NCBI GenBank assembly: GCA_024663395.1 | Contig: JANFAH010000079.1 | Location: 1-64,000, forward strand | Length of the DNA stretch: 64,000 bases | Direction: 5' to 3' | Source: Pisolithus tinctorius | Lineage: Eukaryota > Basidiomycota > Agaricomycetes > Boletales > Pisolithaceae | Shown here: positions 14,919-54,267 of the stretch, piece after piece | Numbering within the stretch: the first letter of the stretch is position 1 | Layout: every line of letters begins with the position of its first letter | The notes under the pieces: model-generated | What the model saw: the letters and a program-made list of their open reading frames with translations, nothing else | Database searches by the model: none | What the model was told of the DNA's origin: nothing | Program-made: the position numbers and the translations under genes

Positions 14919-15979
14919 CTACTTGGCTTCAGACATGTCCTCATCACCCTCCCCAGCCTCCCTACCCTTGGTCTGCAACCACTCCACCTCCTTGTGCATC
15001 TTGTTGGTGTTGAGTTCAGATGAACCCAAGTCCAATGGGGAGACTGGCATCCTGTATCCATACAATTCATCCAGAATCACTTCAAGGGCATCAGTGATCC
15101 AGCCTGAGTTGTTGACTGTGGTTTTATGCAGGTTGTAGAGGCTAGCCAGGTTGTTGGCTATCATCCCTGTGGTGTTGATCAATCATTCAAGCTTCTCTTC
15201 TAAGCCTGAAAAGTACCCTGCACCAGCCTTCCTTGCCCCACTCCCACTGGCCTTGGGCTTGTCAATGTCCAGCACCTCGACTGACTTTGATTTTGCCCAC
15301 TTCTTCTTGCTGGGCCTGGGCTCAGGCAACTCTTCATTGGCCTTCTGCTTCTTCCCCTTGTCAACCTTGGTAGTGGCCTTGGGACCAGTCTTGGTGTCCT
15401 TCCTGTCTCCAGGCCACTGGCACTTGCCCTTTGACTGGTTGCACCATATGCAGGTGACCTGCTTCTTATTACCATCCATGAGAAACTCACAGACAGTCTT
15501 TGCCTGGGTACAGTGGGTACAGCTAAGAGTGGGCTTCAGACAAAACATGCAAGAGTAGAAAAGGTTACTCACCTGGGTTCCATGACCACCTTTTCCACCC
15601 CAGCAGCCTCACTACTACCAGCCCCAGCTTCATCACCCTTCTCGGCCTTGGCCTTATGTTTTTGCTCAGCCTCCTTCTCCTCCTCAGACCTACACCTCCT
15701 CTCCTCCTTGCATGCCCTCTCTTATTTGGCCTCACATGCTGCCCTCTTGGCCTCAACCCTCTCTCTCTCCACCCTTTCGGCCTCCAGCCATGCCTGCTCC
15801 TCCCACCAGGCTTGCTTGGCTGCCTTGCACCACTTCCTCTCTTTGGCCTTGGCCCTCATTGTCTCTTCCTCATTGTTGGTGTCATACTTGATGGCATCAT
15901 CCAACACCTGGGTCCAGTCAACCATGACCTGGCCTTCACTGTTGTTGTCAGTTGTGGTGATTGGTCTTGAATCAGACAT
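14919..15979 (-). pseudogene. A1 antisense accessory gene (coiled coil, Zn2Cys6-like cluster), damaged
   Basis: The gene runs against gag-pol between pol and the 3' LTR. Exon 1 (15573-15979) starts MSDSRPITTT and encodes an Arg/Glu/Lys/Ala-rich coiled coil; a stop lies near 15722. The intron (15523-15572, 50 nt) has donor GTGAGT and acceptor CTTAG. Exon 2 (14919-15522) has cysteines spaced CX2CX6CX12CX2CX6C (CTHC...CEF...CIWC...CQW), which is the spacing of Gal4-type Zn2Cys6 clusters, then Lys-rich segments, a helical stretch (NNLASLYNLHKT) and an acidic tail. The role is unknown; DNA binding or regulation of the element is inference. Partners in A2, B and C show it is an established part of these elements. 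Confidence 0.7.
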
Positions 15980-26662: not shown

Positions 26663-27761
26663 TTACTTGGTCTCAGCCATGGTCTCATCCTCCCCTCTGG
26701 ACTCCTCCTCTTTGTCCTCACCATGGGTTTTCAACCATTCAGCCTCCTTGCACAACTCATCAGAGTCAAACTCAGATGAGTCCAAGTCTGGGGGTGTGAC
26801 CGACATCCCATACCCATAGGACTCATTGAGTAATGACTCAAGAGCATTGGCAATCCAGCCTGAGTTCTTGACTGCAGTTTCATGAAGTTTGAACAGGCTG
26901 GCCAAGTTGTTGGCAATCAGCCTCACTGCATCAATAAGGTGCTTGGGCTTGTCTTCCAAGCCTGGGTACCTGTCTACACTGGTCTCCCTCAGCCTGCTCC
27001 CACTGGCCTCAGGCTTGTCGAGGTCTAGGACCTCAGTCAACCTCACATTTGTCTTTGCCTGCTTCTGTTTGCTGGGCCCAGCCTTGGCATTCTCCTTGTC
27101 AGCCTTTCGCTTCTGGCCCTTGGCAACTCCCCTGGCTTTGGGAATGGCCTTGGTGTCCTTGCCATCACCAGGCCAGTGGCATTTGCCCTTCGACTGGTTA
27201 CACTGGACACAGGCAACCTGTTTTTTGTTGCTGTCCACAAGAAACTTGCAGATGACTTGAGCCTGGGTGCAATGAGTACAACTAAAAAGGAGGTTAGAAG
27301 AAAAAACATGCACAAAGGTGAAAATGATACTCACCTAGGGTCCATCACCACCTTCTTCACTTCACCCCTGGCCTCACCACTGGCACCACCAGCACTGGCC
27401 TCATCACCCTTGCCAGCCTCAGCCTTGTGCTTATGCTTGGCCTCCCACCTCTCCTCCTCTTCATGCACCTTCCTCTCCTTGGCCTCCCTCTCTGCTCTCT
27501 TGGCCTTGGCTCTCTCCCTCTCAGCCCTCTTGGCCTCAGCTTGCTCCCTTGCCCACTCTCAGCCTCAAGCCAAGCCTGCTCCTCCTGCCAGGCTTGTTCA
27601 GCCACCTTGTGCCTTTTCCTCTCCTTCAATTTGGCCTTCATCACTTCCTCCTTGTCATCGGTGTTGTACCTAATTTCATCGTCAGGTACTTGGGTCCAGT
27701 CAACAATGGCATGGCCCTTGTTGTTGTTATTGGTGGCAATGACCAGTCTTGAGTCAGACAT
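26663..27761 (-). pseudogene. A2 antisense accessory gene (coiled coil, Zn2Cys6-like cluster)
   Basis: Exon 1 (27335-27761) starts MSDSRLVIAT; a frameshift after EQAWLEAE puts the true frame, a charged coiled coil ending KKVVMDPR, out of register. The intron (27282-27334, 53 nt) has donor GTGAGT and acceptor TTTTTAG in phase 2, at the same place as in A1. Exon 2 (26663-27281) is fully open: CTHC, six residues, CKF, twelve residues, CVQC, six residues, CHW, which is Zn2Cys6-like spacing. Then follow Lys-rich segments, a helical NNLASLFKLHETAV and an acidic Ser/Asp/Glu tail. It lies between pol and 3' LTR, opposite to pol. A transcription-regulator role is inferred only from the cysteine pattern. 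Confidence 0.75.
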
Positions 27762-29503: not shown

Positions 29504-29505
29504 GT

Positions 29506-30193: not shown

Positions 30194-30645
30194 TGTTACG
30201 TTTCACCCCTAACTTTTCCTTTTCTGTCGAACGTTTACCTTGTTCTTGATCTGTTGGACTTAGTTTCCTTTTAGAGCCATCTTCTCTCTGATCCAACGGC
30301 TCTCTGTTTCCACCACTAGCGTTACTAGCTCATTACATGCTTAGGACATGTGTTGTCGTTGTTCAACCAATGGCGTAGTTACCTCATTACATGCGGACGC
30401 CTCATGGTCTGTCTCTGTGTAGTATTTAGACTGTTGGCCCAAGTCCTGGAAACCCAGACTTGAGCTGCTCAATTATATGCAGTGTTCTCAGAACTTCGCC
30501 TTCAGAAGTCCTTTATAAGGACTACTCTTACCGGCGTTGCCTTAAATCCTCTGTCGTTTACAGAGGTTACCGCAGCCGTTGCTCGGTAGAAACCTTAGTC
30601 TGCGTTTGAGCTCTCCCTATGTCTTGACTTCGGTCGAGCGTAACA
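30194..30645 (+). repeat. 5' LTR of element D
   Basis: 452 bp. A TATA-like TATTTA (30424-30429) lies about 27-32 nt before AGACTTGAGCT (30456-30466), the predicted start of the transcript. Confidence 0.93.
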
Positions 30646-30647
30646 AA

Positions 30648-30658
30648 AGCTCAAGTCT
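30648..30658 (+). other. Self-complementary primer-binding site of element D
   Basis: AGCTCAAGTCT lies two bases after the LTR end and is the exact 11-nt reverse complement of AGACTTGAGCT at 30456-30466, although the sequence is unrelated to the sites of families A, B and C. Confidence 0.7.
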
Positions 30659-30731
30659 ACAGCCTTTGGCCAAATCGGTCACTGCTTAGTGAACCACCAC
30701 GAACCCCCGAAACAACCGACGTTGGGCGCCG

Positions 30732-31844: not shown

Positions 31845-31858
31845 ATGGGAACTCTGCG

Positions 31859-34800
31859 TTGATGCCAGATGTTCCCCAAACTAAGGACAGTTTAGTTTCT
31901 GTTGCCCCTGTACTTGTAACGTCTACACCAGAACGTACTATGCAGATTCCCATCTCCCTTTACGCATCAGGAACCACTCAGAAAGTCATCAACACTACCG
32001 CTCTGGTTGACTCCGGAGCAGAAATTTCTTGCATCGACTGGGGCTTTGTGCAAAAGCACTGAATCCCCACTCAATGCCTCGCTGAACCCATCCTCGCAAA
32101 GAATGCCAATGGAACCCAAAACTCTAAAGGAAGAATACTGTTTTCCGCCACTCTCTACTTCAAGGTTAAAGGACTCATCCATCAGTCCTTTTTCCATGTC
32201 ATCAATTGTGGAACGGAAAACGTCATTTTGGGTCTCCCCTGGCTCCAAGAAAACAACCCTATTGTGGACTGGAGGATGGGCACGTTGTCTATCGACGAGA
32301 AAACCGATAGATCAAAAGAGCTAAGACGCAACATCTCTTCCATTGTCGTCGAAGAACCAACTGTGAATCTTGTATCCTCTGCTGAAAAGAAGGGGATAAA
32401 CAAATTCATGGATTACGAAGAACCAGAAGACGAAACCATCCAAGCACACTTCGTGATGTCGGTTGGAAAACTTGTCGAAGAAGCAAAGAAGATTAATCCC
32501 AACAATAGTCTTCTTCGAAAAATCACCACAGCTACGGAACTGGCCCAAGAAGAACATAGGAAAAGACCGAAGGCTGTCCTTCCTGAAGAGTACAAAGACT
32601 TCACCTCGGTTTTCGAGAAACCATCTGACGGAGTTTTGCCTCCGTCACGACCATACGACCATGCCATAAACCTTGTAGAAGACTTCGTCCCCAAGGTGGC
32701 CAAGGCATACCCTCTCTCTCCCTCTGAACAAGAGTCTGCAGAAAAGTTTATCGAAGAAAACCTTCGAGAAGGAAAAATCCGTCCCTCGAAATCTCCCCAA
32801 GCCACCCCCTTCTTCTTCATAGGAAAGAAGGATGGCTCCCTGCGACCCTGCCAGGACTATAGATATCTGAACAAAAATATGGTGAAGGATGCCTATCCCC
32901 TTCCCCTCATTTCAGATCTTGTCAATAAACTGAAAGGAGCCTCCGTCTTCACAAAGATGGATGTCAGATCCGGCTACAACAATGTCCGCATCAAAGAAGG
33001 AGACCAATGGAAAGCGGCGTTTATCACACATAAAGGACTTTTCGAACCCACTGTCATGTTCTTCGGTCTCTGCAACTCCCTGGCCACCTTCCAGCGATTC
33101 ATGAATGACTCTTTCCAAGACATGATCGCTGAAGGATGGTTAGTCATCTACATGGATGACCTCCTCATCTTCTCAAACGACCCTGAAGAACACAAACGAA
33201 GAACCCATCGTGTCCTCGAAAGAATGAGAGAACTCTCTCTTCCCCTGAAACTGGAGAAATGTCACTTTGACCTTGCTGAGGTGGAATACCTTGGCATGAT
33301 TATCAAAGAAAACACCATCGCCATGGACCCCGTCAAAGTCCAAGGCATCGCTGAATGGCCCGTCCCTAAGAAGGTCAAGGACGTGCGATCCTTCCTAGGA
33401 TTCGCAAACTTTTACAGAAGATTTGTCCCCTACTACTCGGACATTGCACGACCACTCATTGACCTTACCAAGAAAACGGTCGATTGGAGTTGGTCAAGAA
33501 AATGTCAGGACGCCTTTGAGCTCCTAAAAAGAATCTTCATGGCACAACCAACTCTTCGGATGCCTGATACCTCTCGACCATTCGCAATTACTACTGATGC
33601 GTCCAAATACGCAACAGGAGGAATCCTCCTTCAAGAAGATTCGAATGGACAATGGCAGCCCTGTGCCTTTCTGTCCCAATCGTTTAACCCCGCAGAAAGG
33701 AACTACGACATATATGACAGAGAACTGCTTGGGGTTATTCGAGCATTAAAATCTTGGAGACATTACCTCCATGGATCCCCTTTCCCGGTTAAGGTCTTCA
33801 CAGACCATAAAAACCTGACATACTTCAAATCACCGCAAAACTTGAATTGTTGCCAAGCCCGCTGGCTCCTCGACCTTGCAGACTTTGATTTGCAATTAGA
33901 ACACGTCCCAGGCAAAGACCTGGCAGCACCAGATGCGCTCTCCCGCCGCCCTGATCATATCCCCGAGGATGATGAAGACAACAAAGGAGTTACCCTCCTT
34001 CCACAAACCTTGTTTGTCAACCTTATTGACACCAACCTTACTCAGAAAGTCGCATCATCCTCTGAGAAGGATCCTGTAGTCCAGACGGCACTTTGTGCCA
34101 TTGAAAACGTCGACATGCCACTCCCGTTTAAATCCCATCTCTCTGATTGGAGGTTTGACAGCGGAGTTTTACTTTACAAAGAACGGGTGTATATCCCCGA
34201 TGACCCCATCCTCCAATGGACTGTCGTATCCAACCACCATGATCATCCCTCTGCCGGACACCCTGGTGTCCTGAAAACTCGACAGCTCGTCTCGTCTGAG
34301 TTCTGGTGGCCTGGACTTGCATCCTTTGTCCGAAAATACGTTGAAGGCTGTGCTGTGTGCCAGCAAAATAAAGCAAATACCCACCCCACGACACCACCTC
34401 TTACGCCTATTTCCTCCACCTCGACCCGCCCCTTCCAACAGATCTCTTGTGATCTGGTCACCGACCTACCCGTTTCTAATGGCTATGATTCCCTTTTGGT
34501 TGTGGTAGACCATGGGCTTACAAAGGGGGTAATCTTAACACCGACCAAGAAAACTGCTTCCGCTGCCGATATCGCGGCGTTGTTTTTCAAGAAAGTCTAC
34601 TCCTGCTTTGGGTTGTATGACAAAATCATATCAGATCGAGGCCCTCAGTTCGCCTCCACCTTTGCAAAAGAACTCACCTCCCTTTTAGGATATTCCCTTG
34701 CCCTGTCAACGGCATATCATCCACAAACCGACAGAGAGACAGAACGAGTAAACCAAGAGGTGGAGACCTATCTCCGCATATTTTGCCAAAACGACCCCAC

Positions 34801-36547
34801 CTCGTGGGTGAACAATCTACCAATGGCCGAATTTGCACACAACCATCGCCCACACTCTGTCACTCATCAATCTCCATTCTACCTCATGTATGGATATGAA
34901 CCGAAACCTCTTCTGTCCCTGATCATGGAAACCCACCTTCCCGCCACTGAGTCTAGACTCGAGGAACTCCGAAAAGCTAGAGAAGAAGCCCTTGCGGCCC
35001 ACGACCTAGCCAGAAAAACGATGAAAGACCGCTCATCACGACCCTTCTCCCCGTTCCAGAAAGGTGATAAGGTTTGGCTAGAAGCATGCAATTTGAAATG
35101 CTCCTATGAAAATAGAAAGCTGGAACCAAAACGAGAAGGACCCTTCACTGTCTCTGACGTCTTATCTCCGATAACGTATCGCCTCTCCATTCCTGCACGC
35201 TGGAAGATTCACAACGTTTTCCATGCTTCCCTCCTATCGCCCTATCGCGAAAATGATGTTCACGGACCGAACTTCCCAGCTCCACCACCTGACCTAATCA
35301 ACGAAGAAGAAGAATACGAAGTTGAGGCGATAGTCAGCCATAAAAGATCCGGCCGTGGACACGCCTTCTTAATCAAATGGAAGGGTTACCCTTCTTCCGA
35401 AAACTCATGGCAGAAAGAGTCACACCTTGAACACGCAGATGACATGCTCTCCACCTATAAGAAACAATTCCCCAAAGACTTCCCCCTAAAGAAACAACCC
35501 ACTCGACACTCCACTCGTACCATCAGAAACATTACTCTTGAAATGCCTCCTCGTCGTTACACCTACCCCCGTGAACCCTCTCGCCGCCATACCCCATTCG
35601 CTTGTCGACAGAGACAACCCGCCAGTGATCAGATGATCGCTTCTTACCGACTCTTCGTCGCTGACCCCGCCGTCATCAGCACCGTCTACCACGAAGTAGA
35701 CGAGGACTCTCCACTTGACCTTGTGTATCACGCAACTATCCAGGCCCTTCAGCTCGAGGAACTCTCCCGCTATGTCAATCGCCAAAATCCCCTCCTTTCC
35801 CCCGCTCGCACTATCCTAGGTGAAATCGCTCTCCAGCAGGTTCCCTTGCTTCTTAAACTTTTTGATGTCCTTGGAGGCGCCAACCTCATTTATAATGTTC
35901 ACCAGTATCCAACGTTGATCGCACCTCCCCTGCCTGGGTCTAGAAGGCCCTCGACTGCAACCTCTCCTCCGGTTTCCTCCGCGTCGTCCTCCCCTCCCGC
36001 ACCATCGTTGTTGTCATCCTCCCATTCATCCCGCTCTCTTCGTAGAGCCGATAGACCTCACGCCTGCTGCTTATCAGGCCCGAACCCTCAACCCTGCGAG
36101 TCTCATAGCTCGCCGTCCGAAGTAGACCCCGAGACTGCCTTTGGTGTCTCCCATGCAGAACTCGACTACACGTTAAACATTGTCGAAAACCTTGCACAGC
36201 TACCGCTGTCTCCTGTGCTGAATGCTTTGACCGAGTTTGACATACCTCTTACTCCATCTGACCCACGCTATCGTCAAGCGTGTTACATCTGCCACCATCT
36301 CAGCCATATCCGCGTCAACTGTGGACTGTATGAATGTCCCCTTTGCCACGCCACTCGTCCCGGGCATACTCAAGCCCAGTGTCCTTCCATCCACCCTTGC
36401 TGTCCTTTACAGGACAGAATAGCTACCCCCGCCTTGGTAGATGATCGTACCCTCGTTGGGAGCGAGGATAATGACTTGTACGACAATAATTTTGACTTCG
36501 ATGACTCCACCATCAGCAACATGACTGGAGAACCTTATGGAGAGTAG
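31859..36547 (+). CDS. pol: Element D pol polyprotein with chromodomain and C-terminal zinc knuckles (one TGA)
   Basis: Protease near 32005-32040 (LVDSGAEISCID) is followed by one TGA at 32060, probably from CGA; from there the frame is open for over 1439 codons. RT has IYMDDLLIFS near 33149. RNase H has TTDASKYATG and DRELLGVIRAL. Integrase has an HHCC region (HHDHPSAGHPG, CAVCQQNK near 34350) and a DDE core: D in SCDLVTDLP, D in ISDRGPQF, E in ERVNQEVETY. The usual TDGQTE before that Glu reads TDRETE. A chromodomain follows near 35310-35460 (FLIKWKGYPSSENSW). About 350 further residues include Ser/Pro-rich parts and, near 36280-36400, two zinc knuckles: CYICHHLSHIRVNC (CX2CX4HX4C) and CPLCHATRPGHTQAQC. 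The frame is -1 relative to gag. Confidence 0.9.
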
Positions 36548-36584
36548 TTGAAGTCGGGGACTTCAACACTTAAAGAGGGGGTAA

Positions 36585-37036
36585 TGTTACGTTTCACCCC
36601 TAACTTTTCCTTTTCTGTCAAACGTTTACCTTGTTCTTGATCTGTTGGACTTAGTTTCCTTTTAGAGCCGTCTTCTCTCTGATCCAACGGCTCTCTGTTT
36701 CCACCACTAGCATTACTAGCTCATTACATGCTTAGGACATGTGTCATCGTTGTTCAACCAATGGCGTAGTTACCTCGTTACATGCGGACACCTCATGGTC
36801 CATCTCTGTGTAGTATTTAGACTGTCGGCCCAAGTCCTGGAAACCCAGACTTGAGCTGCTCAATTATATGCAGTGTTCTCAGAACTTCGCCTTCAGAAGT
36901 CCTTTATAAGGACTACTCTTACCGGCATTGCCTTAAATCCTCTGTCATTTACAGAGGTTACCGCAGCCGTTGCTCGGTAGAAACCTTAGTCTGCGTTTGA
37001 GCTCTCCCTACGTCTTGACTTTGGTCGAGCGTAACA
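36585..37036 (+). repeat. 3' LTR of element D
   Basis: 452 bp, preceded by a purine-rich tract TTAAAGAGGGGGTAA. About 97 percent identical to the 5' LTR. Confidence 0.93.
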
Positions 37037-41400: not shown

Positions 41401-41974
41401 CAAACCAGATCTTGGAACAGTACCTCCAGGTATATTGTAACTACCAACAGGACAACTGGGCCAAGTTACTTCCATTGGCTGAGTTTGCCTACAACAATGC
41501 CCTGAGTGCCACCACCAGTGTTTCCCCTTTCTTTGCCAACAAGGGCTACCACCCTAACCTCTCAGTCTTCCCTGAAAGGGACTTGTCCTTGGCCCAGGCT
41601 AGGGACTACACCATGGACCTAGACAAACTACACCAGTTCCTACAGGAAGAGATGGCACTAGCCCAAGCTAGGTACCAAGGTCCGGCAGATGCAAAAAGGC
41701 TACTGGCACCCGAGATCAACCTTGGCGACCAGGTCTATGTCAAAGCCAAGTACTTCCAGACCACAAGGCCATCACAGAAACTCACAGACAAGAACCTAGG
41801 CCCTTACTTGGCAATGGCCCAGCCTGGCACCCACTCATTCACCCTTTGCCTCCCAGACTCCATGTGAGCAGTACACCCAGTGTTCCACATATCACAGTTA
41901 GAACTGGCACACCCCAACACTATTCCAAACTGAATTCAGTCACCACCACCTCTGGTCGAGGTTGATGGTGAACC

Positions 41975-42688
41975 TGTCAAGTCCGGGCCTACTCCGACCA
42001 ACTCTGACGCTATATAAGGTCTAGAGGAAGGTCCAGAAGCAAGTCTGACACAGGAGAACAGAACTCTGACTAGCGGAGTGGTGGCAGGAACGAAGTCTGC
42101 TGAAGCAGAGGCAGAGCAGAGTGAGGGCGTCAGGTTTAGCTTGTGTGCTACCCCCTTGCACAATCTCAGCCCTCATATTTCAGAGGGAGAGTACAAACAG
42201 AGAGTTGGAGATAACTCCAACAGGCAGAAGACGGAATCAGAGGGAGTAGGAACTAAGTTGATATTCATACTGAAGAACAGCAGAGTACAGTACATGTTTT
42301 TATACTGCTACAGAGGTACAGTAATCAGAATCGGAACTGACATATGGAGACTCATAAATTTTCAAGTAAAATTTCCTGGACGATGAATGAAGGGTAGATG
42401 GAGGACATACGAATGGGTAACACAGAGCATCCAGAAAAGGAAATAGTCCAGGCACTGGACCATGCGGTGAGCACACTGCAGAGTACCTGACTGTGAAGGT
42501 AGTCACATGACCCCTCAGAGAACGGACCACTCAGTCTGGTAGGGGAGCAACACAAGTCCAACAGCAGCCAGAGCGGAGATGGTTCACAACCAACAGAAGT
42601 TGGGCGGAGTTGGTGCAGAGTGAGTGAATGACCAGTGGAGTAGGGTGCAGAGTGAGTAAGGGCTTAGTGTGAATGCATGGTTATGACA
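41975..42688 (-). repeat. 3' LTR of element B
   Basis: 714 bp. The minus strand carries AGTATAAAAAC near 42300 and AGTATGAATAT near 42265, which matches the primer-binding site at 50223 perfectly. Confidence 0.92.
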
Positions 42689-42860
42689 GTGCCCCCCCCT
42701 TAGGGCCTGAACCCCTGAAGGCTGCATGTACGGAACGAGATCAACATGAGTTGATCATTTGAAATTACTTTGATGCCTCGAGGATAATGGCTTTAGCCAT
42801 GGTGGAGCTCCATTGGAGCTCGAAGTTCCGCTTAAAAACACGTGTTAGGGTACCAAACCT

Positions 42861-44117
42861 TTGTCCCTTCCCCCCATCATCATGCCTTCCCAGTGCCAGA
42901 GCAACACCCTCCAGCCAACCCCCAGCCACATTCGCAACTACTCCCAGGTTGCGGATGAAGAACTGGTCATCCTCACCGACGACTCCACTGACACCAAGCA
43001 GGAGAAGTCCGTGGAGAAGGCATGCCAACAAGAGGAGACTGAGTGGAGAGAGAGAGAGTGCGAGGCAGAGCACAAGGCCAAGTGTGAGGAGGCCAAGAGG
43101 CGGAAGGCGGAGGAGGAGAGGTTGGAGGCGGAGCGGAGGAAGAGAGCGGAGGAGGAAGAGGAGGCTCGAAGGAAGAAGGCGGCAGAGGAGGAGGCAGAAA
43201 GGCAAAGGCAGAGAGCGGCAGAAGAGGCAGAGAAGCAGAGGCAGAGGGCCCAGGCCAGGTGGGATGAGGCCGTGCAGAGGTGAGTGACAGAACCCTATGA
43301 GTCAGGCGGAGCTGACTTGTATTTTCATTTCAGGTTAAGTGGTGCAGTCTATGATGTCAACACCGCCCAGAGGGTCCCTGGGACCTCTATGGTGGTCACT
43401 GCAACCAGGCAGCCCCCCTGCACTCGCTGCATAGCAAGTCTGATGGCAGGCCAGTGTGAGCCAGGACAAGGCAAGACCAGGGCCTGTGTGCCCTGTCATA
43501 ACAAAAAGAAGACCTGCAGCTGGACATGGGAAGAGGTGGTGGCGGGGCCTTTGTGGAAGAGAGCAGGGACAGGGAGCTCCTGAGGCGAGAAGAAGAAGAG
43601 GATGCAAGGGAAGGGAAAGGAGAGAGCAATGGAGATGGAGGAAGCAGATGATGAGCAGGAGGCAGGTGGAGAAGATGAGGAGGAGCCAGCAACACTGCAC
43701 GAGGGACCCTTAGAAGTGGGGGTCTCCTCCTGGTGGACGGAGTGGGAGCGGGAGCAGCAGCTGCAGGCTGCAGAGAGGTACATGGCGGTGCACAAAAAGG
43801 CTGCAACAGCCTTCGAGAGGATGGCAAGGGCAGTGGAGCGGATGGTGGAGGCGGCAGAGTGGACAGCCAACGAGTGGGGGCTGTACCACAAGTGGGCAGA
43901 GATGAGGAGGAGGGAGGACACATGCAAGGCCAGGATGGCCAAGTTCGAACACACAGGAGGAGGATGGAAGAGGCTGCAGTCAGAGGCGGCAGAGGGCAGG
44001 GAAGATGAAGCGGATGAAGGTGCAGAGGGGGATAACGAGGAAGAGGAAGAAGTCAGAGGAGAGCAGGGAGGTGAAGAAGAACAGGAGGGTGGTGGAGGAC
44101 AAGCAATGGAAGAGTAG
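42861..44117 (+). pseudogene. Element B antisense accessory gene (coiled coil, six-cysteine cluster), one stop
   Basis: The gene runs opposite to B pol, between pol and 3' LTR. Exon 1 (42861-43279) starts MPSQCQSNTL and is mostly a long Glu/Arg/Lys/Ala coiled coil. The intron (43280-43333, 54 nt, phase 2) has donor GTGAGT and acceptor TTTCAG. Exon 2 (43334-44117) has cysteines CX2CX8CX9CX2CX6C (CTRC, CEP, CVPC, CSW), close to Zn2Cys6 spacing, followed by a helical segment (AAERYMAVHKKAATAFERM) and a Glu-rich acidic tail. One TGA at 43581-43583 interrupts an otherwise open frame and could derive from CGA. The stop of pol on the other strand lies at 44297, so the two genes converge. Function unknown. 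Confidence 0.75.
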
Positions 44118-44296
44118 AGTAGTAGTTTTTTTTTTTTTTTCTTTAGTTTGTATATTTTGTACTACTATGAGATAGACTTGTGACTTTGTTTGTGACTCAG
44201 AAGAGAAACAGATAAGCAGAGAAAATTCTAAAGTACATAAGGTAGTTTGGTAAGAGGCAGAGTTGGCCTGCGGAGGAGGATTATGTAGGTGGAGTA
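44118..44296. terminator. Convergent intergenic gap of accessory gene and B pol
   Basis: A run of about 17 T (near 44128-44144) follows the accessory stop, then AT-rich sequence including TATATTTTG. Both genes would end here. Assignment as a shared 3' end region is inference. Confidence 0.3.
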
Positions 44297-47200
44297 TTAT
44301 GGCGGAGGTTGGTACAGGCCAGGTTTGTGTGGATAGCGTTCATGGAAAGTGGAGACTATGTTGGAAGCGTGATCTAGCTCAGTTGCAAGCAACCAAGAGG
44401 TTTCTTTGTTGGTGTTCTCATAACCAGCCCAGTGGACTAGATACAAGAGCTGACAATGGTGGTGATGGCGGTCCACCTTAGAGTCGAGTATCTCTGATAC
44501 TTTGTACTCAAGGTCACCATTGACATCCACTGGCAGAGGCGGAGGTTGTTGTCAGTTTAGGAAAGGGTTAGTCGCTGTGGCTTCCAGTTGTGAGACATGG
44601 AAGACGGGATGTACTGAGCGCATAGAGTCAGGGAGTTTAAGGGTGATGGAATGCATACCTGGCCTGGCCAAGATGGTGAATGGACCTAAGTACTTTTTGG
44701 AGAGTTTCTCTGAAGGACAAGTGGAGCGGAAGTACTTGGCTTTGACATAGGCCTGTTCACCAACCTTGAACTCAGGCAGAGGTATGCGCTTGGCATCTGC
44801 TGGACCCTGGTAGCGCTGCTGAGCAGCAGACATTTCGGAGTGGAGGAAGTCATGAAGGGCGGAGAGTTCAACAACATAGTCATGAGCCCTTGGAGAAGTG
44901 AAGTCTTGGTCAGGGACCACAGACAGGTTTGGATGGTATCCCTTGTTAGTGAAGAAGGGAGAAACTCCAGTAGTCACACTTGGTGCATTGTTGAAAGCGA
45001 ACTCTGCTAGAGGTAACAGCTCAGCCCAGTTGTCTTGTTGGTAGTTACAGTAGACACAAAGGTACTGTTCAGGGGTCTGGTTTGTTCGCTCGGTCTGGCC
45101 ATCACCTTCTGGGTGGTAACCCGAAGTGAAGTGAAGATGCATATCTAGGGCCTTTCCTAGAGAGCGGAAGAAGTGTGAGACGAACTCAGGACCTCTGTCA
45201 GAGGTGACATTAGCTGGAACTCCGTGCTTGGAGAAGACATGGGTTAGGAAGAGCTTAGCAAGTTTGGCGGAGGTGATGGAGTCGTGGGTGGGGATGAACA
45301 CCACTTGCTTTGAGAGGCGGTCCACTACCACAAGTATGGCAGAGTAGCCATCAGAGTTGGGGAGGTGTTTGATGAAGTCCATGGAGATGGAGTTCCAAGG
45401 TCTCTCTGGGACGGGGAGTTGCTTCAGTAGACCATAAGGGCAGTGACACAGAGTTTTGCTCTGTCCACAGGCGGTGCAAGACCTGATGTATTCTTTTACG
45501 TCAGAGCGGAGGTTGGGCCACACGTAGTCCCTGTGGACGAGTTCTAAGGTGTGGTTTTTGCCTGAAATGGCCTGCTAGAGGATGATCATGCTTGAACCGA
45601 AGCACTCAGAGGCAGAGGTCATCAATGTCAGGGACAAAGACATGCCCGTCAAGGCGGAGTAGACCGTCAGAGTCCAGGGACCACCGAGGCCTAGTCAGAG
45701 TTGGGAGATGGCTGGTGGAGACAGGGTTGGAGGGTAGGGTGGAGATGATGTCGGAGTGCAAGCACTCAACATTGAAGACCATGGCAGCACGGAGCACAGG
45801 TGCCATGAGGGTAGTGGTATGGAGGGACAACGCAAGTTGCTCCTGTGTAAACATAGGGCGGAGATTGTGAGGATTTACCTGCATGTAGTCCCTATCCCCC
45901 CCTTTTGGGTAGACGTCCCAACATCGTGTAAGTGCATCGGGTTTGGCTCCTAAGCAGCCAGGTCAGAAGCAGATAGAAAGATTAAACTGGGAAAGGTACT
46001 CCGACCAGTGGGCCTGTCGACAAGTGAGAACCTTAGAGGTGGAAAAGTACTCAAGGTTTTTGTGGTCTGTCACCACATCGACAGGTAAGGTGGAGCCTTC
46101 CAAGTAATGCTGCCAATGGTGGAAGGCCTTGAAGATAGCCAACAGCTCCTTGTTGTGGGTATCATAGTTGAGTTCTGGTGTGGTCATGGTGTGGGAGTAG
46201 AAAGCGACTGGGTGGAGTTCACCATCAGAGCAGGTGATTGACAAAATGCCAGCAATGGCATAGTCGGAGGTGTCAGTTTCAACTGTAAGCAGAGCATCAG
46301 GGACCCAATGAGTGAGAATGGGAGCAGAGCTGAAGGCATCCTTCAGGTGGAGGAAAGCAGAGTGGCACTCCTCAGAAAAGTTCCAAGGAGCACCCTTTCG
46401 CATGAGGCAAGTGAGCGGAACGACGATGTCGGAGTAGTTATTAATGAATTGTCTAGAAATTTGTGAAGCTGAGGAAAGACTGGATGTCTCACACCTTTCA
46501 CAGCTCAGGCCAGTCGCAGACTGCCTGAACCTTCTCAGTGGACATGGTGAGACTGGAGAGAGAAAGAACATAACCGAGGTACTTGATGGAGTCAGAGTGA
46601 AACTTGCACTTCTCTGGCTTGGCATAAAGGCCATGCTTTCGAAGGCGGCAGAGTACCTCTTTTACATGTTCACGATGCGACTCTATGTCCTGCGAATAGA
46701 TTAGGATGTCATCGAGGTATACCACGATGCAGACATCGAGCATGTCTGCAAAGATGCTATTGACAAATTGCTGGAAAGCCACAGGCGCATTAGTCAGACC
46801 AAATGGCATTACCTGCCACTCGTAAGAACCATAACGAGTGTGGAAAGCCATTTTCCATTCATCTCCATCTGCTATGCAGACTAGATGATAGGCATGGTGG
46901 AGATTGATCTTGGTGTAGACTTTAGCGTGGCTTGGAGAGTCGAGTAGGTCAGAGATGAGCGGCAGTGGATAGTGATCTTTTTTCGTGATTTTGTTGAGTC
47001 CTTGATAGTCTATGCAGAGGCGGAGTAAACTGTCTTTCTTCTTCATGAAGAGGACAGGGGCACCGTGAGTGGAGGTGGATTGTTTGATGAAACCATAGCC
47101 AAGGTGCTCGTCAATGAAGGTGCAGAGAGCCTCAAGCTCTGGCAGAGAAAGAGAGTAGATTGTACCAATGGGCAGAGAAGCTCCTTCTGTCAAGTACAGG

Positions 47201-48899
47201 TTTACCCTCAGAGTGACCAGGCTTCAAGACCAGGTGACAGGGGTCAAGTCCGAGTGGCCAAAGTCAAGGCCAAGAGACTGGGGCCAAGTCCAGTTGGACC
47301 AGAGTTGAGGCCGGAGGTTAGGGGCTAAGTCCAGGGGACCGGACTTAAGGCTGGGAGGGCGTGAACAAGGCCGGTAGTGTGGGAAACCAACTGGTCTTGG
47401 AGTGCACACAAGGGGAAGCCAGTCCAGGGTTGGATCTACCTCCCTTGGTCTCAGCTTATGTGCTGTACCCTTATGCAAGCTGGGGAGAGGTCCGGGACAG
47501 GGGCTGGGGATAGCTTAAGGCTTGGCCTTAGCTATAGAGTAGTCTTGAGGGGTAATACAGGAGTCGAGGGTAATACTTAATTGATATTCTGACTGGGGTG
47601 CTACAAAGTATGTACAGGGGTTAAATACATGAGGCTGGTCTGGGATAATGAACATAGAGCTGGACTTGTGAATAAGCTATTAGTGAGATGATTAGCAAGA
47701 TGAGGATAGCCACAGTGACTATGCAGAGGCTAATAGCCAAAGTCCGGGTGACCAGCATAACCAGGGTCGGACACAGGATTGTACAGTAAGCAAAGTCTGA
47801 TGAATGGGCTAGACTAAATATAGTACAAACAAAGGGAAACAGACCGGAGTTATGTCCGGGTGACCTGGACATAGACCTGGGAGGACCAGGGTGGAGCAGT
47901 GCAAGGCTGGAAGGTTGGAATGGACTGGAGATAGGGGTAAAAGACTGGACTTAAGTTATTTAGACCGGAGTTGGGTTTCCTAGGGCTGGACTAGGACCGG
48001 ACTTGACTGGAGATAGGGGCTAGGGGTCCGGACTGGACTGGGACTGAGTCTGAGAGTCATGGATATGACACCTTCCTCGAGGTCGATCTTGAGATCGAAT
48101 GAGCAGTGTGGCAGAAGTTCTGTGGCCTTGTCTTTACTAAAGATGTCGGCAAACTCGTGATACTCAGGAGGAACTGAGGAGAGGTCAGGAGGCGGAGATG
48201 AAGCGGAGGACACACGAAGCTTCACATCATCAGTGGAGAGCTGTAAGTGGAACTGTCTGGAGCCAGGGAGAGCACAGGCTCTGACATATGCAGCAGCATT
48301 GATGAGTGAGATGAGTGGAGTGGAGTGCGGCAAGTCTGTCAGAGGTGCAGTCAGAGCTGCAAACGGAGTGGAGGGTGTCAGATCCGGGGTGGAGGTCACA
48401 GCGGAAAGTGACAAAGGCACCTGGGGTGTTGGCATTCCCTGTAACAATGGTTTGAATGATATACTGCCCAGTACCCAGTCAATCGACGGATTGAAGCAGG
48501 TGAGCCAGTTGTGTCCTAACACCAGTGAACATGAAGAATCCAATGGAGTAACATAAAACGAAACAGAATTGACATCACCAGAAGGGAAGTGGAGGGAAAG
48601 ATCTACTTCTTGGGAGATGACAGCATTTGTACTACTGTCAAACAAGCAGAGCAGAATTGGCAGAGAAATGGAGGAAACAGAAATAGCATATTTTTTAATT
48701 ACAGACAGGTCTATGAAGCAATGAGAAGAACCAGAATCAATCAACGCAGAAAAAGTATCAACAGAATAATCTGGAAGAGTTACAGACAGAAGTAAGGAAT
48801 TGGGACTAGAAAGAGTGGATGTGTTGAGTTGGATGTCTGGTTGCACACAGTTGGGTTCAACGCTTCCTCCAGGCTGTGCGAGCTCCCTGGAGGAGCAGA
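44297..48899 (-). pseudogene. pol: Element B pol (protease to chromodomain; frameshifted, F LTR inside)
   Basis: Protease (LIDSGSSHCFID near 48730) is in the -1 frame after the gag slippery site and is open through about 48071. A solo F LTR (47188-48070) then interrupts. RT (46498-47193) has [10 protein letters not shown] near 46690 and ends in a frameshift near 46497. RNase H (45963-46440) and a linker (45606-45884) follow. Integrase (44552-45523) is open: CTACGQSK, D in SMDFIKHLP, D in VTSDRGPEF, E in NQTPEQY. The chromodomain frame (44297-44530: YLVHWAGYENTNKETSW) is separated by a further shift. Nearly intact domains but not a continuous polyprotein. Confidence 0.87.
47188..48070 (-). mobile_element. 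Solo LTR of family F in element B pol
   Basis: 883 bp, reversed copy of the LTR at 23493-24394, with a perfect 5-bp duplication CCTTC (47183-47187, 48071-48075). It is the innermost level of the nest: A2 LTR, E3, C, B, F. Confidence 0.88.
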
Positions 48900-50174
48900 C
48901 TAATTTTTTGGCTCTGCCTGCTCTGCAGGCAGAGTTCCAGCTGTAGCTGCACAGGCTTTGGCTGCATGGGAGGTGGACTTGGGACAGTCCTTGGCGGAGT
49001 GGCCAGCCTCGCCACAGAAGAGGCAGGGGTTGTTTTTCATCCTGCACTGGTGCTCAGCAGAGGTGAGTTTGCCATCTTTACCCAGAAGTTGGGCAATATC
49101 GGACTTGGATGCATTGGACTTGGGTGGATCTTTCTGTTTGCCCTTGCCCTTGGCATTGGACTTTTGAGCAGAGGCAGAGGATGACAATTTAGACTTGTTG
49201 TCAGAGTTGGAGGGCTGCAACTTGTCAGAGGTGGACTTGGTGGTACGTGAGATTTCCACTTTGCGCTCCCAGTAGTGTGCATTGATGGTCTGGGTGAGTT
49301 CGTGGAGTTGTGCGAGGGTAGAGGGTTTTCCGACATGAGTGATCTCATCCTTGATGTGGTCTGGAAGTCTGCTATAGAAGCGGTGGTGGAGTGCACTGAC
49401 ACCATAGTCCTTGACTTGTGAAGCCCAGCAATTGAACTCCATGACATATTTGGTAATTCGAGAACCGTCCTTCATGGTAAGGTTCTCAAGTTGTTGGACA
49501 GCATCTGCTATAGCATTGTGCGGACCGAAATTAGCTGTGAGCTCTTGTAAGAACTCGTGATAGTTGTCCATCCAGAGCAGGTGGTCATAGTTGTCGGGGT
49601 TTAGTAGGTCTGGCTTGAACCAAGCCAGGGCCATCCCCTTAAGATAAGATTGAGCGAAGGTAACCTTTGCTCTGTCAGAGCGGAATGCACGAGGGCAGTC
49701 TTGGAAGTTCAACTTGCACTGAACGAGGAACTCACAGAGTTTTTTAGGGTCGGAGCCATCGAAGGTGTCAGGCTCGCGGACTTTGGTTTTTGGAGCAGAG
49801 TCCTCAGTGTGCAAACTAGACCGTGCAAGTGCATGGAGAGCTCTAGCAAGAGCTACGAGGGGATCCTCTGGCGGCTCAGCCAGGTCTTCGGGGATATCCC
49901 CGTCACTGCTGCCCCCACCATCAGGATCACCATCAGGATAGTCAGGGTTGGGGTTGGGTCCATCATCTCAGTTACGAGGAGATGGAGTATGGAAAGTTGT
50001 TGGGTGGAGGTTGGAGCGACCAGCCTGTGAAGCACTTTTGCCTTCAGTGCGAGAGTGGCATTGAGTGGAGAATGATTGGAACTGTTCGACAACAGAAGGG
50101 AGTTGACGCGGATTAGCTAGCACAACAGCGAGGTTCTCAGCAACCTCTCTCTGGGATTGAGCTCAAGTTCTCAT
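48900..50174 (-). pseudogene. gag: Element B gag with two TGA codons
   Basis: The frame starts at ATG 50174, meets TGA after three codons and again near 49970, then is open to TAG at 48900. It shows a Asp/Gly/Pro-rich acidic part, EPDTFDGSDPKKLCEF, SYLKGMALAWF and the zinc knuckle CLFCGEAGHSAKDC near 48990-49031. The end EPKN-stop overlaps the slippery heptamer A AAA AAT (48903-48909), and protease is open in the -1 frame. A start after the first stop is possible. Confidence 0.82.
48903..48909 (-). promoter_or_regulatory. Probable -1 frameshift site of element B
   Basis: On the minus strand A AAA AAT immediately precedes gag TAG. It is a variant of the all-A heptamer in A and C, still a plausible slippery sequence. 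Confidence 0.55.
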
Positions 50175-50222
50175 AACAGTGTAAGTTTTTTGGAAGACAG
50201 AAAACAAGATTGTACAAGTGCA

Positions 50223-50233
50223 AGTATGAATAT
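50223..50233 (-). other. Self-complementary primer-binding site of element B
   Basis: On the minus strand ATATTCATACT lies two bases after the LTR end. It is complementary to AGTATGAATAT, the predicted transcript start in the 3' LTR (near 42265); the 5' LTR itself has one C/T change (AGTACGAATAT near 50525). Confidence 0.65.
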
Positions 50234-50235
50234 AC

Positions 50236-50949
50236 TGTCAAGTCCAGGCCTACTCCGACCAACTCCGATGCTATATAAGGTCTAGAGGAAGGTCCAGAAG
50301 CAAGTCTGACACAGGAGAACAGAACTCCGACTAGTGGAGTGGTGGCAGGAACAAAGTCCACCGAAGCAGAGGCAGAGTGGAGTGAGGGCATCGGGTTTAG
50401 CTCATGCACTACCCCCTTGCACAATCTCAGCCCTCGTATTTCAGAGGGAGAGTACAAACAGAGAGTTGGAGATAACTCCAACAGGCAGAAGATGGAATCA
50501 GAGGGAGTAGGAACTAAGTTGATATTCGTACTGAAGAACAGTGGAGTACAGTACATGTTTTTATACTGCTATGGAGGTACAGTAATCAGAATCAGAACTG
50601 ACATATGGAGACTCATAAATTTTCAAGTAAAATTTCCTGGATGACGAATGAAGGGTAGACAGAGGACATATGAACAGGTAACACAGAGCATCCAGAAAAG
50701 GAAATAGTCCAGGCACTGGACCATGCAGTGAGCACGCTGCGGAGTACCTGACTGTGAAGGTAGTCACATGACCCCTCAGAGAATGGACCACTTGGTCCAG
50801 TAGGGGAGCAACACAAGTCTGACAGCAGTTGGAGTGGAGATGGTTCGCAACCAACAGAAGTTGGGCGGAGTTGGTGTGGAGTGAGTGAATGACTGGCGGA
50901 GTAGGGTGCAGAGTGAGTAAGGGCTTAGTGTGAACGCACGGTTATGACA
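50236..50949 (-). repeat. 5' LTR of element B
   Basis: 714 bp with minus-strand TATA (AGTATAAAAAC near 50555-50565). Differences from the other B LTRs are mainly transitions. Confidence 0.92.
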
Positions 50950-51278
50950 GAACCAGAGTATGAGATCACCAAGATCCTCGACTCAAAGGTAGACTGACAC
51001 CGAAGGTGTAAGCTACAGTACCTGGTACACTGGGCTGGCTATGAGGGCACCGATGAAGAAACATCCTGGCTACCAGCCACCGAGCTGGGCAATGCCGAGG
51101 ACCTACTCACTGCTTTCCATGCCAGTTATCCCAGTAAACCCAGTCCAGTCACTAGTTAAAAACATACCTTTCTCTTCTTTCCCTCTTGTTTCCTTACCCT
51201 TGTTTTCCCTTACTATACCAAGAATGGTTCATTACACTGATACTATGTACATACATCAGTGTTCAGTCCTACTGGCTT

Positions 51279-52373
51279 TCACTTGGAGTCCCCCTTGAAC
51301 ACCTCCCCATCGCTTTCCCAGAGCTCCCTCTCCTCCCCACTCCCCAAGTCAGACCACTGACCCTTCATGTGCATGTCCTCAGGCTGGTGCATGATCCCCT
51401 CATCCAACTCCACCCCTGCTCCTTTGCAATCTGACTGGAGGCTCTCAAGCTCCAGGTCTGCCACATCCAAGTGCAGCTCTTCACTGGACTCAGATGACAG
51501 GGTGGACGGGCAAAGAGCAAACTTGAACTCACCCAGTAAATCACCCAGCTGACTGTTGAATCAGCACTGGGTCTCCCTCCTGGCTCACATGTTGGTGGTC
51601 TGACAGTCCATGGCTGCTGCAATCAGCTCAAAACCTTTGACCACTGCCACAACCAGAGGGTCAGAGGAGGCAGTGGTGGGCACAACCACTGCCAAGGGGC
51701 CAGCTTCTGACTCACCAGGCACCCCAGACTTGGTTTGGGTGACTTTCTTCTTTTCCCTGGCCCTTGGAAACATAACATCCTCCAGCACTCTCTTCTTCCC
51801 AGCCTTTGCCCTGACCTCTTCAGTCTCAGGCTCCACTCCCTTGGGCAACTCGCACCTGACCTTCATTTCAGTGCACCAGTTGCATGTCCTCTTCTTGCAC
51901 TTGCTCTGCTGCATGTGACCAAAGGTGCATGGCACCCGACCCTTCTTGCACTGTTGGCACAACTTGGTGCTCACAACACTGACAGTCTTCTCCTGCTCCT
52001 TGCCTTTCAGCTCCAGCTGCACCTGGCTCTCTCATTCTCAGCACTCGGCTTCCACCTGTTCCTGCTCCTTCCTCTTGGCCTCCAACTGCTCCTGCTCCCA
52101 CTTTTCGGCCTCCACCTGCTCCCTTTCATGCTGCTTGGCTTCCAACTGCTCCCTCTCATGCTGCTTGGCCTCCAGTCACTCTCTCTCAAGCCTTTCCACC
52201 TCCAACCAAGTGGCCTCTTCCCTCAACACCTTGCACCGCTTGCACTTGGCCATCTTAGCCTGGATGTCAGCCTCCTTGTCATCACTGGTGATCTGGAGTT
52301 CAGGCGTGGTGGTCTTCTGAAAGCTGGATGGGTTGTTGGGTACGTGCAGGGAAGCTTGACAAGTAGAAAACAT
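51279..52373 (-). pseudogene. Element C antisense accessory gene (coiled coil, six-cysteine cluster), broken
   Basis: It starts MFSTCQASLH at 52373 on the minus strand. After an acidic stretch (TSDDKEADIQAKM) comes a coiled coil of heptad-like LEAKQHEREQ repeats with stops (TGA) near 52175 and 52035. The cysteine cluster CX2CX6CX14CX2CX6C (CQQC, CTF, CNWC, CEL) follows near 51950, with no intron before it, then basic residues (KKRVLEDVM, REKKKVTQ) and, after a frame change, an acidic end (51279-51470). Position and order match the A and B genes, so it belongs to the same accessory family, with a longer central gap and an added Cys. Confidence 0.68.
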
Positions 52374-52516
52374 GATGATGGGATCAGGAGAAAACAATTC
52401 TTCACAAAAGACACACCTTTTTAACCCTGGGGAACACATGTTCTGTTGGCACAGCGACTGCCAACCTCATGTACCTTAGGGCAGGTCTCAAGGGCTCGAC
52501 CCTAAGGGGGGGATAC

Positions 52517-53003
52517 TGTCATATACTGAGAAACCCACAGTTCAGTCTTAGGTTCTGAATGCCAGGTCAATACCAAACACTGAGACAAGGTCTGTCCCTT
52601 ACTATACTTTTCTAGTTAGCCTTTGTACTGCCCTTGCTTGTGCCAAGGCAGTGTCTGTCTTTGGCTCTCCGATCCCTGCCTTCTTGTTTAACCTTAAGTT
52701 AGTTCCTTGCACAGCTATTTAGTTCCTCACTGGTAACCCCGGCCTTTGGGTTGCCAGTCTTCAGTATATATACTCTACATACATTGTACTTAGTCCCTCA
52801 GTCTGAATATCAACCTAGTTCACCCCAAGTTCCCAGCTTAAGCCCAAGTCAACTCTCAGCTTTTGCTCCTGACCCCCCTCGGCCCTCTCTCTGACTTCAA
52901 CCCAGCTTGCACAAGGGTCTAGCACACGAGCTAAGACCAAGGGTTGTTGCACCTGGTGCTCAGCCTTCAGCCTTTGACCCCTGACCTAGTCATGAACTTA
53001 ACA
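52517..53003 (+). repeat. 3' LTR of element C
   Basis: 487 bp, after the purine-rich tract AAGGGGGGGATAC; same length as the 5' LTR. Confidence 0.92.
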
Positions 53004-54267
53004 GTGGCAATGCAAGTCAGATCTTGGTGGAGACATCTCTAGATCCAAAGATGGCATGACGGATGGATGGTGTTTCCAGATAGGGAAGTATTAATTCCAG
53101 AATTGAAGGGCATGAGTCAGGTGTCAAAGGGGCTAGGGCATTGGGGGTCTGTGGGGCAATGGGAGCATACACAATCACATCTCCCACCCTTTCATCCTCT
53201 CAGCAAAGTTAACAAAAACTTCATGAATGGGGCTCTGATGGAGGAGGAGGAGAAGGGGGGACATCTTCTGCTGGATCTTGCAGTAAGAAGGCAAGATGCA
53301 TGTCATACTCATCATGGATGCAATCAGGGAGGCTGGAGAACAGTAGATTATACTGCAGCTGTTGCAATGTGAGAAGAATGATGGATGAGATTGGAATAAA
53401 GACAGTGCAGGGAGCAGGGAGGAACAATCCATATGCTTCACCAAGAGGGGAGACTGAAATGACCACATAAGACCTTTCTAACTGAGTGACAGACCTGAGG
53501 TGACCAAAGAATGTCCTTCTGGAAGTCATACTGACAAGGAGAACACACTGACCAAGCTGCATGGGATGGGATGGGGCTGATGATGATGGGATGAACCAGG
53601 GGGCTTCAGGACAGAAGCTGGTGGGAATGCCTGGCAGATATATGTAGCCACTGTCTCTGGCAAATGATACAAGTGAGATGATCAACAAAGAGGTGGCCAT
53701 GATTGATGGACTTAGTGAAATGAGCATCTGATGGATGGAGTGCTGTAGAAATGCATAGGGTGTGAGGATCCTCTCCAAATTTGGAAGGCAGAATCATGTG
53801 GCTGAGCACTTTAAGCAAGTGTGAGAACTGAGTTGATATCTTTGGAAATGGTGGAGATATGACAAAAACCAGAATGCTGTACACAGGTGCTAAAAACTTT
53901 TAATGTGCACTTAACTTGCTTCCTCTTTTCTCTTTAGTACTGATGACTCATTCTTGTGCAAAGGATGACTGTTAATGTCCAGCAGTCTTTCTATGCATGA
54001 GGCCTCTAGTCTTCATCTGCATGGCATGGGCATTGTGCACAACTCATCAATGAGTTAGGCAGAGCCAGCTGTAACCATGTCCACAACACCTTTGGTGTGT
54101 GACATCAGACTGAGACCCACACAAGGGAATAGCACTGTAATCTCAGTCACTAAGTCCAAACAGTCCAACCATCTGTATCTTTGACTCCCCTCCTCATCCT
54201 GACCCCTCAGCCTCATGCCCACTTTGGTCTCTGGTCCAGCCTCAACCCAGACACCCTGAACTTGACA

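What the first reader, a model, noticed from the sequence alone, without database searches (positions are those of the whole stretch)
42861..44117. Antisense, intron-containing accessory gene with Zn2Cys6-like cluster carried by three gypsy families
Elements A1, A2, B and C each have, between pol and the 3' LTR and on the opposite strand, a gene with one plan: short head, charged coiled coil, six cysteines, basic stretch, helix, acidic tail. The cysteine spacing (CX2CX6CX12CX2CX6C in A) is that of Gal4-type fungal zinc clusters. A and B keep a small phase-2 intron despite living in elements that move through spliced-off RNA; antisense placement explains how the intron survives. A retrotransposon with its own fungal-type DNA-binding regulator, for LTR control or target choice, would be new to me. 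The presence and plan are seen; function is inference.
Basis: partly seen in the sequence, partly recalled or inferred. Interest (0 to 1): 0.88.

Follow-up and report, generated by a model that had tools for sequence, protein, structure and literature searches.

The report
Retrotransposons carrying a backward zinc-cluster gene
Three related families of jumping genes in a mushroom carry, on the opposite strand, an extra gene that selection has kept as a protein and that seems to make a rearranged fungal DNA-binding zinc-cluster protein, so these elements may encode their own gene regulator.

Summary
The window lies in Pisolithus tinctorius. Element B (41975-50949, minus strand), a chromodomain-type Ty3/gypsy element, carries a plus-strand gene (exons 42882-43279, 43334-44117) between pol and 3' LTR; families A and C carry relatives in the same slot (profile E 7e-12 A-B, 6e-15 A-C). 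In 33 aligned B copies the donor GTGAGT and acceptor AG are intact, intron length is 54/58/68/69, and 21 of 24 exon indels are multiples of three. pN/pS is 0.27-0.28 (transversions 0.21-0.26); the pol end has 0.20 (0.11). The antisense frame is the lowest of six where compared (B and A exon 2, C). Cysteines: 198/198 (B), 107/108 (A), 48/48 (C). So it is a selected, probably spliced protein gene, though the window copy has a stop. Antisense genes in this slot are known (plant aORF-3R, Botrytis brtn). New is the cluster: below the Pfam Zn_clus cut-off as it stands, its halves fit Gal4-class proteins better in swapped order, suggesting a circularly permuted Zn2Cys6 (weak scores, not proven). I favour a dimeric DNA-binding regulator of the element; an inverted repeat before the gene is perfect in 21/21 copies. 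Transcription, metal and DNA binding are untested.

The parts
41975..50949 (-). Element B, nested Ty3/gypsy element with both LTRs; 5-bp target duplication GAACC at 41970-41974 and 50950-50954, inside element C's chromodomain-like frame
   Evidence: LTR pair 92.5% identical, ends and flanks
50236..50949 (-). B 5' LTR
41975..42688 (-). B 3' LTR
44297..49814 (-). B gag-pol: Ty3 capsid, protease, RT, RNase H, integrase, Tf2-type SH3 (Pfam), then a chromodomain-like stretch (read by eye); interrupted by stops in this copy
   Evidence: Pfam hits; end of the frame
42739..42756 (.). Perfect inverted repeat GATCAAC-N4-GTTGATC in the presumed antisense promoter
   Evidence: arms perfect in 21 of 21 copies; one match in the window at up to 2 mismatches, 0.16 expected
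42830..42850 (+). TATA-like TTAAAA and CACGTG-like motif, conserved, about 30-50 nt upstream of the ATG
   Evidence: promoter role is inference
42882..43279 (+). Antisense gene exon 1: head and charged coiled coil
   Evidence: long helix with pLDDT mostly above 90 in the model of a relative, P0001
43280..43333 (+). Phase-2 intron, GTGAGT...CTGAC...CAG
   Evidence: GTGAGT 33/33, AG 33/33, CTGAC 33/33, lengths 54/58/68/69
43334..44117 (+). Antisense gene exon 2: Cys cluster, basic stretch, long helix, acidic tail; in-frame stop at 43581-43583 in this copy
43419..43517 (+). Six-cysteine cluster of B, CX2CX8CX9CX2CX6C
   Evidence: 198 of 198 cysteines kept in 33 copies
14919..15979 (-). Family A copy 1 antisense gene (cluster 15420-15521)
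26663..27761 (-). Family A copy 2 antisense gene (cluster 27179-27280)
51279..52373 (-). Family C antisense gene, intronless (cluster 51852-51959); element C LTRs 29016-29505 and 52516-53005 on +

Best explanation
Shown: three related Ty3/gypsy families of Pisolithus tinctorius share a protein-coding accessory gene, antisense between pol and the 3' LTR, kept by purifying selection of the same order as on pol; in A and B it bears an intron with conserved splice sites. Inferred: it is transcribed from its own promoter in the polypurine-tract-to-ATG interval and spliced. Its protein dimerises by the N-terminal coiled coil and folds its six cysteines into a two-zinc cluster whose halves are in reversed order relative to Gal4 (a circular permutation). 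The lysine-bearing half and the basic stretch after it contact DNA, and the acidic tail recruits transcription machinery. It binds the element's own control DNA, the inverted repeat beside the 3' LTR being the first candidate, to set the balance between antisense and genomic transcription, much as retroviral antisense regulators do.
For: Copies and placement; of 20 B copies fetched with flanks, 20 have the 3' LTR and 18 the pol end in the expected opposite orientation. Coding selection: pN/pS B exon 1 0.27 (95% 0.21-0.33), exon 2 0.28 (0.22-0.35), transversions only 0.21 and 0.26; pol end 0.20, transversions 0.11; the other five frames of B exon 2 are 0.42-1.33; A exon 2 0.29 (18 copies); C 0.34 (8 copies). 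Indels: 21 of 24 B exon indels are multiples of 3, p 6e-8. Splice sites 33/33 and 19/19. Homology of A, B and C by profile. Cluster: for the profile of 9 A and 3 C clusters, 5 PDB sequences reach E<=10 and all 5 are Zn2Cys6 (Leu3, Ppr1, Put3, best E 0.031); in the 3 alignments shown (2 Leu3, 1 Ppr1) both halves align in swapped order. Pfam Zn_clus scores rise on swapping: A 16.8 to 20.2, B 12.0 to 18.1, C 14.9 to 25.0 bits, cut-off 21. Inverted repeat perfect in 21/21.
Against: No RNA or binding data. The AlphaFold cluster regions have pLDDT about 37-51 and no useful fold match. The PDB matches are weak (best E 0.031) and family by family weaker: B finds nothing, A ranks thanatin above Leu3, C finds AlcR at E 0.61 followed by two unrelated chains. 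One of four swapped constructs had no Zn_clus match, and the joining loops in those constructs were my choice. One window copy (A1) matched Zn_clus across both halves in native order, though under the cut-off (11.7 bits). On transversions the gene is less constrained than pol (0.21-0.26 against 0.11). No inverted repeat is shared by A, B and C. CGGAG is enriched in the B LTR but similarly in the pol end, and GCGGA in the gene, so it is not an LTR signal.
Confidence: 0.45

Rival explanations
1. Integration or nuclear-import cofactor: the protein coats cDNA or chromatin and helps the pre-integration complex enter the nucleus or choose sites, alongside the chromodomain; it does not regulate transcription.
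For: Chromodomain in A1 by Pfam and chromodomain-like frames in B and C by eye; basic stretch after the cluster; some plant aORF-3R proteins are nuclear with unknown role (PMC7264820).
Against: Cluster resembles sequence-specific DNA binders; a conserved inverted repeat sits by the gene. None of this is decisive.
Confidence: 0.2
2. RNA-binding or packaging protein: the cysteines are nucleocapsid-like and the protein binds element RNA.
For: Cysteine and lysine rich; would work in trans from a separate transcript.
Against: gag of B already has a CCHC knuckle match (E 4e-4, just under the cut-off); the cluster keeps six cysteines and no equally kept histidine ligand in A and C (B does keep one histidine beside the fifth cysteine); the combined A+C profile finds only Zn2Cys6 proteins in PDB.
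Confidence: 0.1
3. The antisense transcript is the functional product (dsRNA or siRNA control of the element); the protein is a by-product.
For: Antisense transcripts of LTR elements are proposed to feed silencing (PMC7264820).
Against: Protein-level selection in the antisense frame in A, B and C, and frame-keeping indels in B. An RNA role in addition is not excluded.
Confidence: 0.05
4. Counter-defence: the protein dampens host silencing (RNAi, methylation) instead of regulating the element's promoter.
For: Uneven, often heavy CpG loss among copies suggests host methylation (LTR CpG counts 2 to 55); the protein differs strongly between families while pol DNA stays 70-73% identical in aligned stretches.
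Against: No similarity to a silencing suppressor came up in the Pfam scans; none was specifically searched for.
Confidence: 0.12
5. Decaying passenger: a host gene captured once and carried along.
For: Window copies are broken by stops or a frameshift; 27 of 33 B copies have at least one stop.
Against: pN/pS far below 1, no bootstrap of the whole exons reaching 1; present in three families at the same place; the listed database hits outside P. tinctorius are only 4 P. orientalis proteins, though that search sees near relatives only and I did not check each hit for lying in an element.
Confidence: 0.03

Closest known systems
aORF-3R: antisense additional ORFs between pol and 3' LTR (maize Grande gene23, rice RIRE2, Silene Retand ORF4/TRP28, PvRetro13)
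   Same: Same slot, same orientation, present in most copies, conservation similar to other element proteins, some nuclear or predicted DNA-binding (PMC7264820 parts 1-2 of 3; PMC11963269 passages)
   Different: Those are plant elements (Retand is a non-chromovirus lineage, PMC11963269 abstract start) with other domains; no cysteine cluster and no conserved intron is described in what I read
brtn of Boty-like retrotransposons, Botrytis cinerea
   Same: Fungal LTR element with an additional antisense gene (title of Zhao et al. 2011 seen in a reference list; placed among aORF-3Rs by PMC7264820)
   Different: Ascomycete; the brtn paper itself was not read and its sequence not compared
Gal4/Leu3/Ppr1-class Zn2Cys6 DNA-binding domain (Pfam PF00172)
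   Same: Six cysteines in two CX2CX6C-like halves, one half with lysines before its last cysteine, in a protein with coiled coil and acidic region
   Different: Halves apparently in the opposite order; below Pfam cut-off as found; spacing outside the Gal4 range in B (X8) and C (X14)
HTLV-1 HBZ and related antisense retroviral regulators
   Same: Regulator encoded antisense; nuclear (PMC11963269 passage); spliced antisense mRNA near the 3' LTR and leucine zipper are recalled, not from a call
   Different: bZIP, not zinc cluster (recalled); no sequence relation claimed or tested

Membership tests
aORF-3R (antisense additional ORF of LTR retrotransposons) | Lies between pol and 3' LTR | tested here: met
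   B in window; 3' LTR in 20 of 20 and pol end in 18 of 20 fetched B copies; C
aORF-3R (antisense additional ORF of LTR retrotransposons) | Antisense to gag-pol | tested here: met
aORF-3R (antisense additional ORF of LTR retrotransposons) | Conserved like the element's other proteins | tested here: met
   pN/pS 0.27-0.28 against 0.20 for the pol end; less close on transversions, 0.21-0.26 against 0.11
aORF-3R (antisense additional ORF of LTR retrotransposons) | In most copies of the element | not tested
   copies were found by the gene itself, not counted from pol
aORF-3R (antisense additional ORF of LTR retrotransposons) | Own antisense promoter and transcript | not testable with these tools
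   no RNA data; conserved TATA-like and inverted-repeat interval only
Pfam Zn_clus PF00172 (Gal4-type Zn2Cys6) | Score above curated cut-off (21 bits) in native order | tested here: not met
   11 of 59 A, 2 of 13 C, 0 of 32 B members match at E<=1, best E 0.022; the window B piece E 0.85; best native-order cluster segment 16.8 bits
Pfam Zn_clus PF00172 (Gal4-type Zn2Cys6) | Spacing CX2CX6CX5-12CX2CX6-8C (recalled) | tested here: not met
   met in A; not met in B (X8 in first half) and C (X14 between halves)
Pfam Zn_clus PF00172 (Gal4-type Zn2Cys6) | DNA-contacting half first | tested here: not met
   order appears reversed; native-order Zn_clus stretches fall on our second half in 5 of 6 listed cases, the sixth (A1) ran in order
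Pfam Zn_clus PF00172 (Gal4-type Zn2Cys6) | Two-metal cluster fold | tested here: inconclusive
   pLDDT about 37-51 over the cluster; no usable fold match
Ty3/gypsy chromovirus (host element) | gag, PR, RT-RH-IN order and chromodomain | tested here: met
   B: Pfam domains in that order, chromodomain-like frame read by eye, not Pfam-scanned; A1: Pfam Chromo; C: chromodomain-like frame split by B, by eye

The most novel reading that the evidence does not exclude
A retrotransposon lineage has acquired and kept a circularly permuted Zn2Cys6 transcription-factor domain, hidden antisense so that its gene can keep an intron, and uses it as a self-encoded regulator of its own LTR or antisense promoter; the permuted cluster is a DNA-binding domain type that the Pfam model does not catch.
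Probability: 0.4. Interest if true: 0.85.

Novelty: new variant of a known kind. Interest (0 to 1): 0.66.

Why it matters
The function of antisense accessory genes in LTR elements is an open question (PMC7264820). This case has dozens of copies in one genome, three diverged families, selection of the same order as on pol, an intron that would report splicing directly, and a candidate DNA site, so the question becomes testable. If the cluster is what it seems, it is a zinc-cluster DNA-binding domain with its halves in the order opposite to Gal4, under the Pfam cut-off, and a fungal counterpart to retroviral antisense regulators.

Tried and rejected

The B set keeps one identical pair (L024, L025); leaving L025 out gives 0.278 for both exons. 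The pol control (20 rows: 19 copies and the window) includes L017, whose match lay on the same strand at 77% identity. Profiles used 32 of 73 B, 59 of 135 A and 13 of 22 C database proteins, as deposited, some with odd gene models. The cluster profiles used 9 of 19 A, 6 B and 3 or 6 of 8 C segments, picked without stops.

Full report
What is there. The window is contig 79 of a 92.5 Mb assembly. Database proteins identical over the queries I made from L002 and from the window's A2 gene are Pisolithus tinctorius, and a listed contig length, 6,752,466, equals that of contig C1, so the host is that ectomycorrhizal mushroom. The focus element B is a nested Ty3/gypsy element on the minus strand: LTRs 41975-42688 and 50236-50949, 92.5% identical, flanked by GAACC on both sides, inserted into the chromodomain-like frame of element C, whose own LTRs are 29016-29505 and 52516-53005. 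B encodes Ty3 capsid, protease, RT, RNase H and integrase by Pfam and a chromodomain-like frame by eye. Between pol (stop at 44297) and the 3' LTR the plus strand holds the gene: exon 1 42882-43279, intron 43280-43333, exon 2 43334-44117.

It is a real coding gene. 40 places were scored for each of B, A and C, the cap. I aligned 33 B copies (median identity 0.841). Donor GTGAGT, acceptor AG and a CTGAC branch-like site occur in 33 of 33, while intron length is 54, 58, 68 or 69, differences that would break the frame if it were not removed. The ATG and the final stop are kept in the 33 rows printed. Exon indels: 9 of 11 and 12 of 13 are multiples of three (p 6e-8 pooled). In C 7 of 12, and in A exon 2 8 of 15, are multiples of three, weaker and partly due to ragged ends. 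6 of 33 B copies are open throughout.

Selection. Pooled pairwise pN/pS is 0.266 in exon 1 and 0.282 in exon 2; transversions only, which avoid the CpG decay, give 0.207 and 0.261. The other five frames of exon 2 give 0.42 to 1.33 (0.61 to 2.08 on transversions). The integrase-to-chromodomain end of pol in 20 rows gives 0.204 (0.105 on transversions) over 330 codons (0.236 and 0.140 over the longer stretch). So the accessory gene is constrained to a similar degree overall and less than pol on transversions. A exon 2 gives 0.291 (18 copies), C 0.335 (8 copies), both lowest of six frames. The most similar B pairs (pS below 0.1, 30 pairs) show 0.42, as expected if young insertions drift. In the 34-codon B cluster pN/pS is 0.109; its transversion figure has too few events to use.

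One family in three element families. Profile comparisons give A-B 97.5% (E 7e-12), A-C 98.4% (E 6e-15) and B-C 94.8% (E 5e-8). The A-B match includes the head (DYSQV.DEEL against DWTQ..DD.I) and the cysteine cluster. Low-complexity coiled coil may inflate these numbers, and the B-C alignment does not pair the cysteines correctly.

What the cluster is. A has CX2CX6CX12CX2CX6C, B CX2CX8CX9CX2CX6C, C CX2CX6CX14CX2CX6C. Pfam Zn_clus is the family most often touched in A and C, under the cut-off; B database members give none and the window B piece E 0.85. Of six native-order stretches listed, five put our second half on the profile's first half; one (A1) ran in order. UniProt calls some A and C members 'Zn(2)-C6 fungal-ty...' (name listing). 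A profile of 9 A and 3 C clusters finds 5 PDB sequences at E up to 10 among 177,635: Leu3 (two), Ppr1, Put3 (two), all Zn2Cys6. In the three alignments shown, our second half aligns to their first half and our first to their second; for Put3 the table shows our first half on their second. Scoring the halves in swapped order raises Zn_clus from 16.8 to 20.2 (A), 12.0 to 18.1 (B) and 14.9 to 25.0 bits (C, over the cut-off of 21); doubled halves score 13.1 and 12.1; a second A variant, swapped, had no match, and its native order was not run. Single-family profiles are weaker: B none; A thanatin before Leu3; C AlcR at E 0.61 with both halves swapped, then two unrelated chains. In Gal4 the two halves are related by a pseudo-twofold axis and share the metals symmetrically (recalled), so exchanging their order is structurally easy. 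I regard the permutation as likely but not proven.

Control region. The interval from the polypurine tract to near the ATG is better conserved than the adjoining LTR end (99 of 166 invariant columns against 41 of 89, 21 copies) and holds GATCAAC-N4-GTTGATC with perfect arms in 21 of 21 copies, then TTAAAA and CACGTG-like motifs. The repeat occurs once in the window at up to two mismatches, 0.16 expected. The A and C intervals looked at have no matching palindrome. C has TTAAAA and a CACGTGTT in the same interval in L012.

Reading. The best-supported mechanism is a nuclear, dimeric, DNA-binding regulator. Shown: gene, splice signals, selection, homology. Likely: two-zinc cluster with swapped halves. 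Inferred: antisense promoter, nuclear location, target site, effect on transcription. Compared with print: antisense genes in this slot are known from plants and from Boty of Botrytis, function undetermined (PMC7264820 parts 1-2 of 3; PMC11963269 and PMC8365987 passages). P. tinctorius is reported to be rich in Gypsy elements, chromodomain-bearing ones the most abundant, with clades almost exclusive to it (PMC5689174 passages). I found no paper on this gene family with the searches named under Tried and rejected.

Noticed in passing
window 60033-64000 and 3-3890: Two copies (90% identical) of an NLR-like gene: NPHP3_N/NACHT domain at 60182-61888 (+), followed by about 129-bp tandem repeats (right-hand copies 90-97% alike) that by eye look like WD40 repeats on the + strand; only the opposite strand was Pfam-scanned there, without a match.
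   Followed up: partly
window 30194-37036: Another LTR element (LTRs 96.9% identical) within the span of element C, with a 1439-aa open reading frame whose first 591 residues hold RT and RNase H; looks young.
   Followed up: partly
B copies L020, L024, L027, L030; locus L012: CGGAG/GCGGA words are several-fold over-represented in the B LTR, pol end and accessory gene; the L012 locus (family C) is instead rich in GCCGA/CCGAG. Reason unknown.
   Followed up: partly
window 43280-43333 and copies: The B intron holds a conserved near-palindrome AGTCAGGCGGAGCTGACT, overlapping the presumed branch site.
   Followed up: no
B-type LTRs in L013-L032 and the window: CpG content of 22 LTR copies ranges from 2 to 55, showing very uneven CpG decay.
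   Followed up: partly
G000 contigs C145/C22 and others: Small contigs carry copies identical to (L024/L025) or scoring the same as copies on large contigs, suggesting that alternative haplotypes remain in the 92.5 Mb assembly.
   Followed up: partly
L012, interval upstream of the C gene: CGG-N6-CCG and CGG-N11-CCG spacings (Gal4-class site geometry, recalled) occur within an inverted repeat upstream of the C gene; single locus, could be chance.
   Followed up: no
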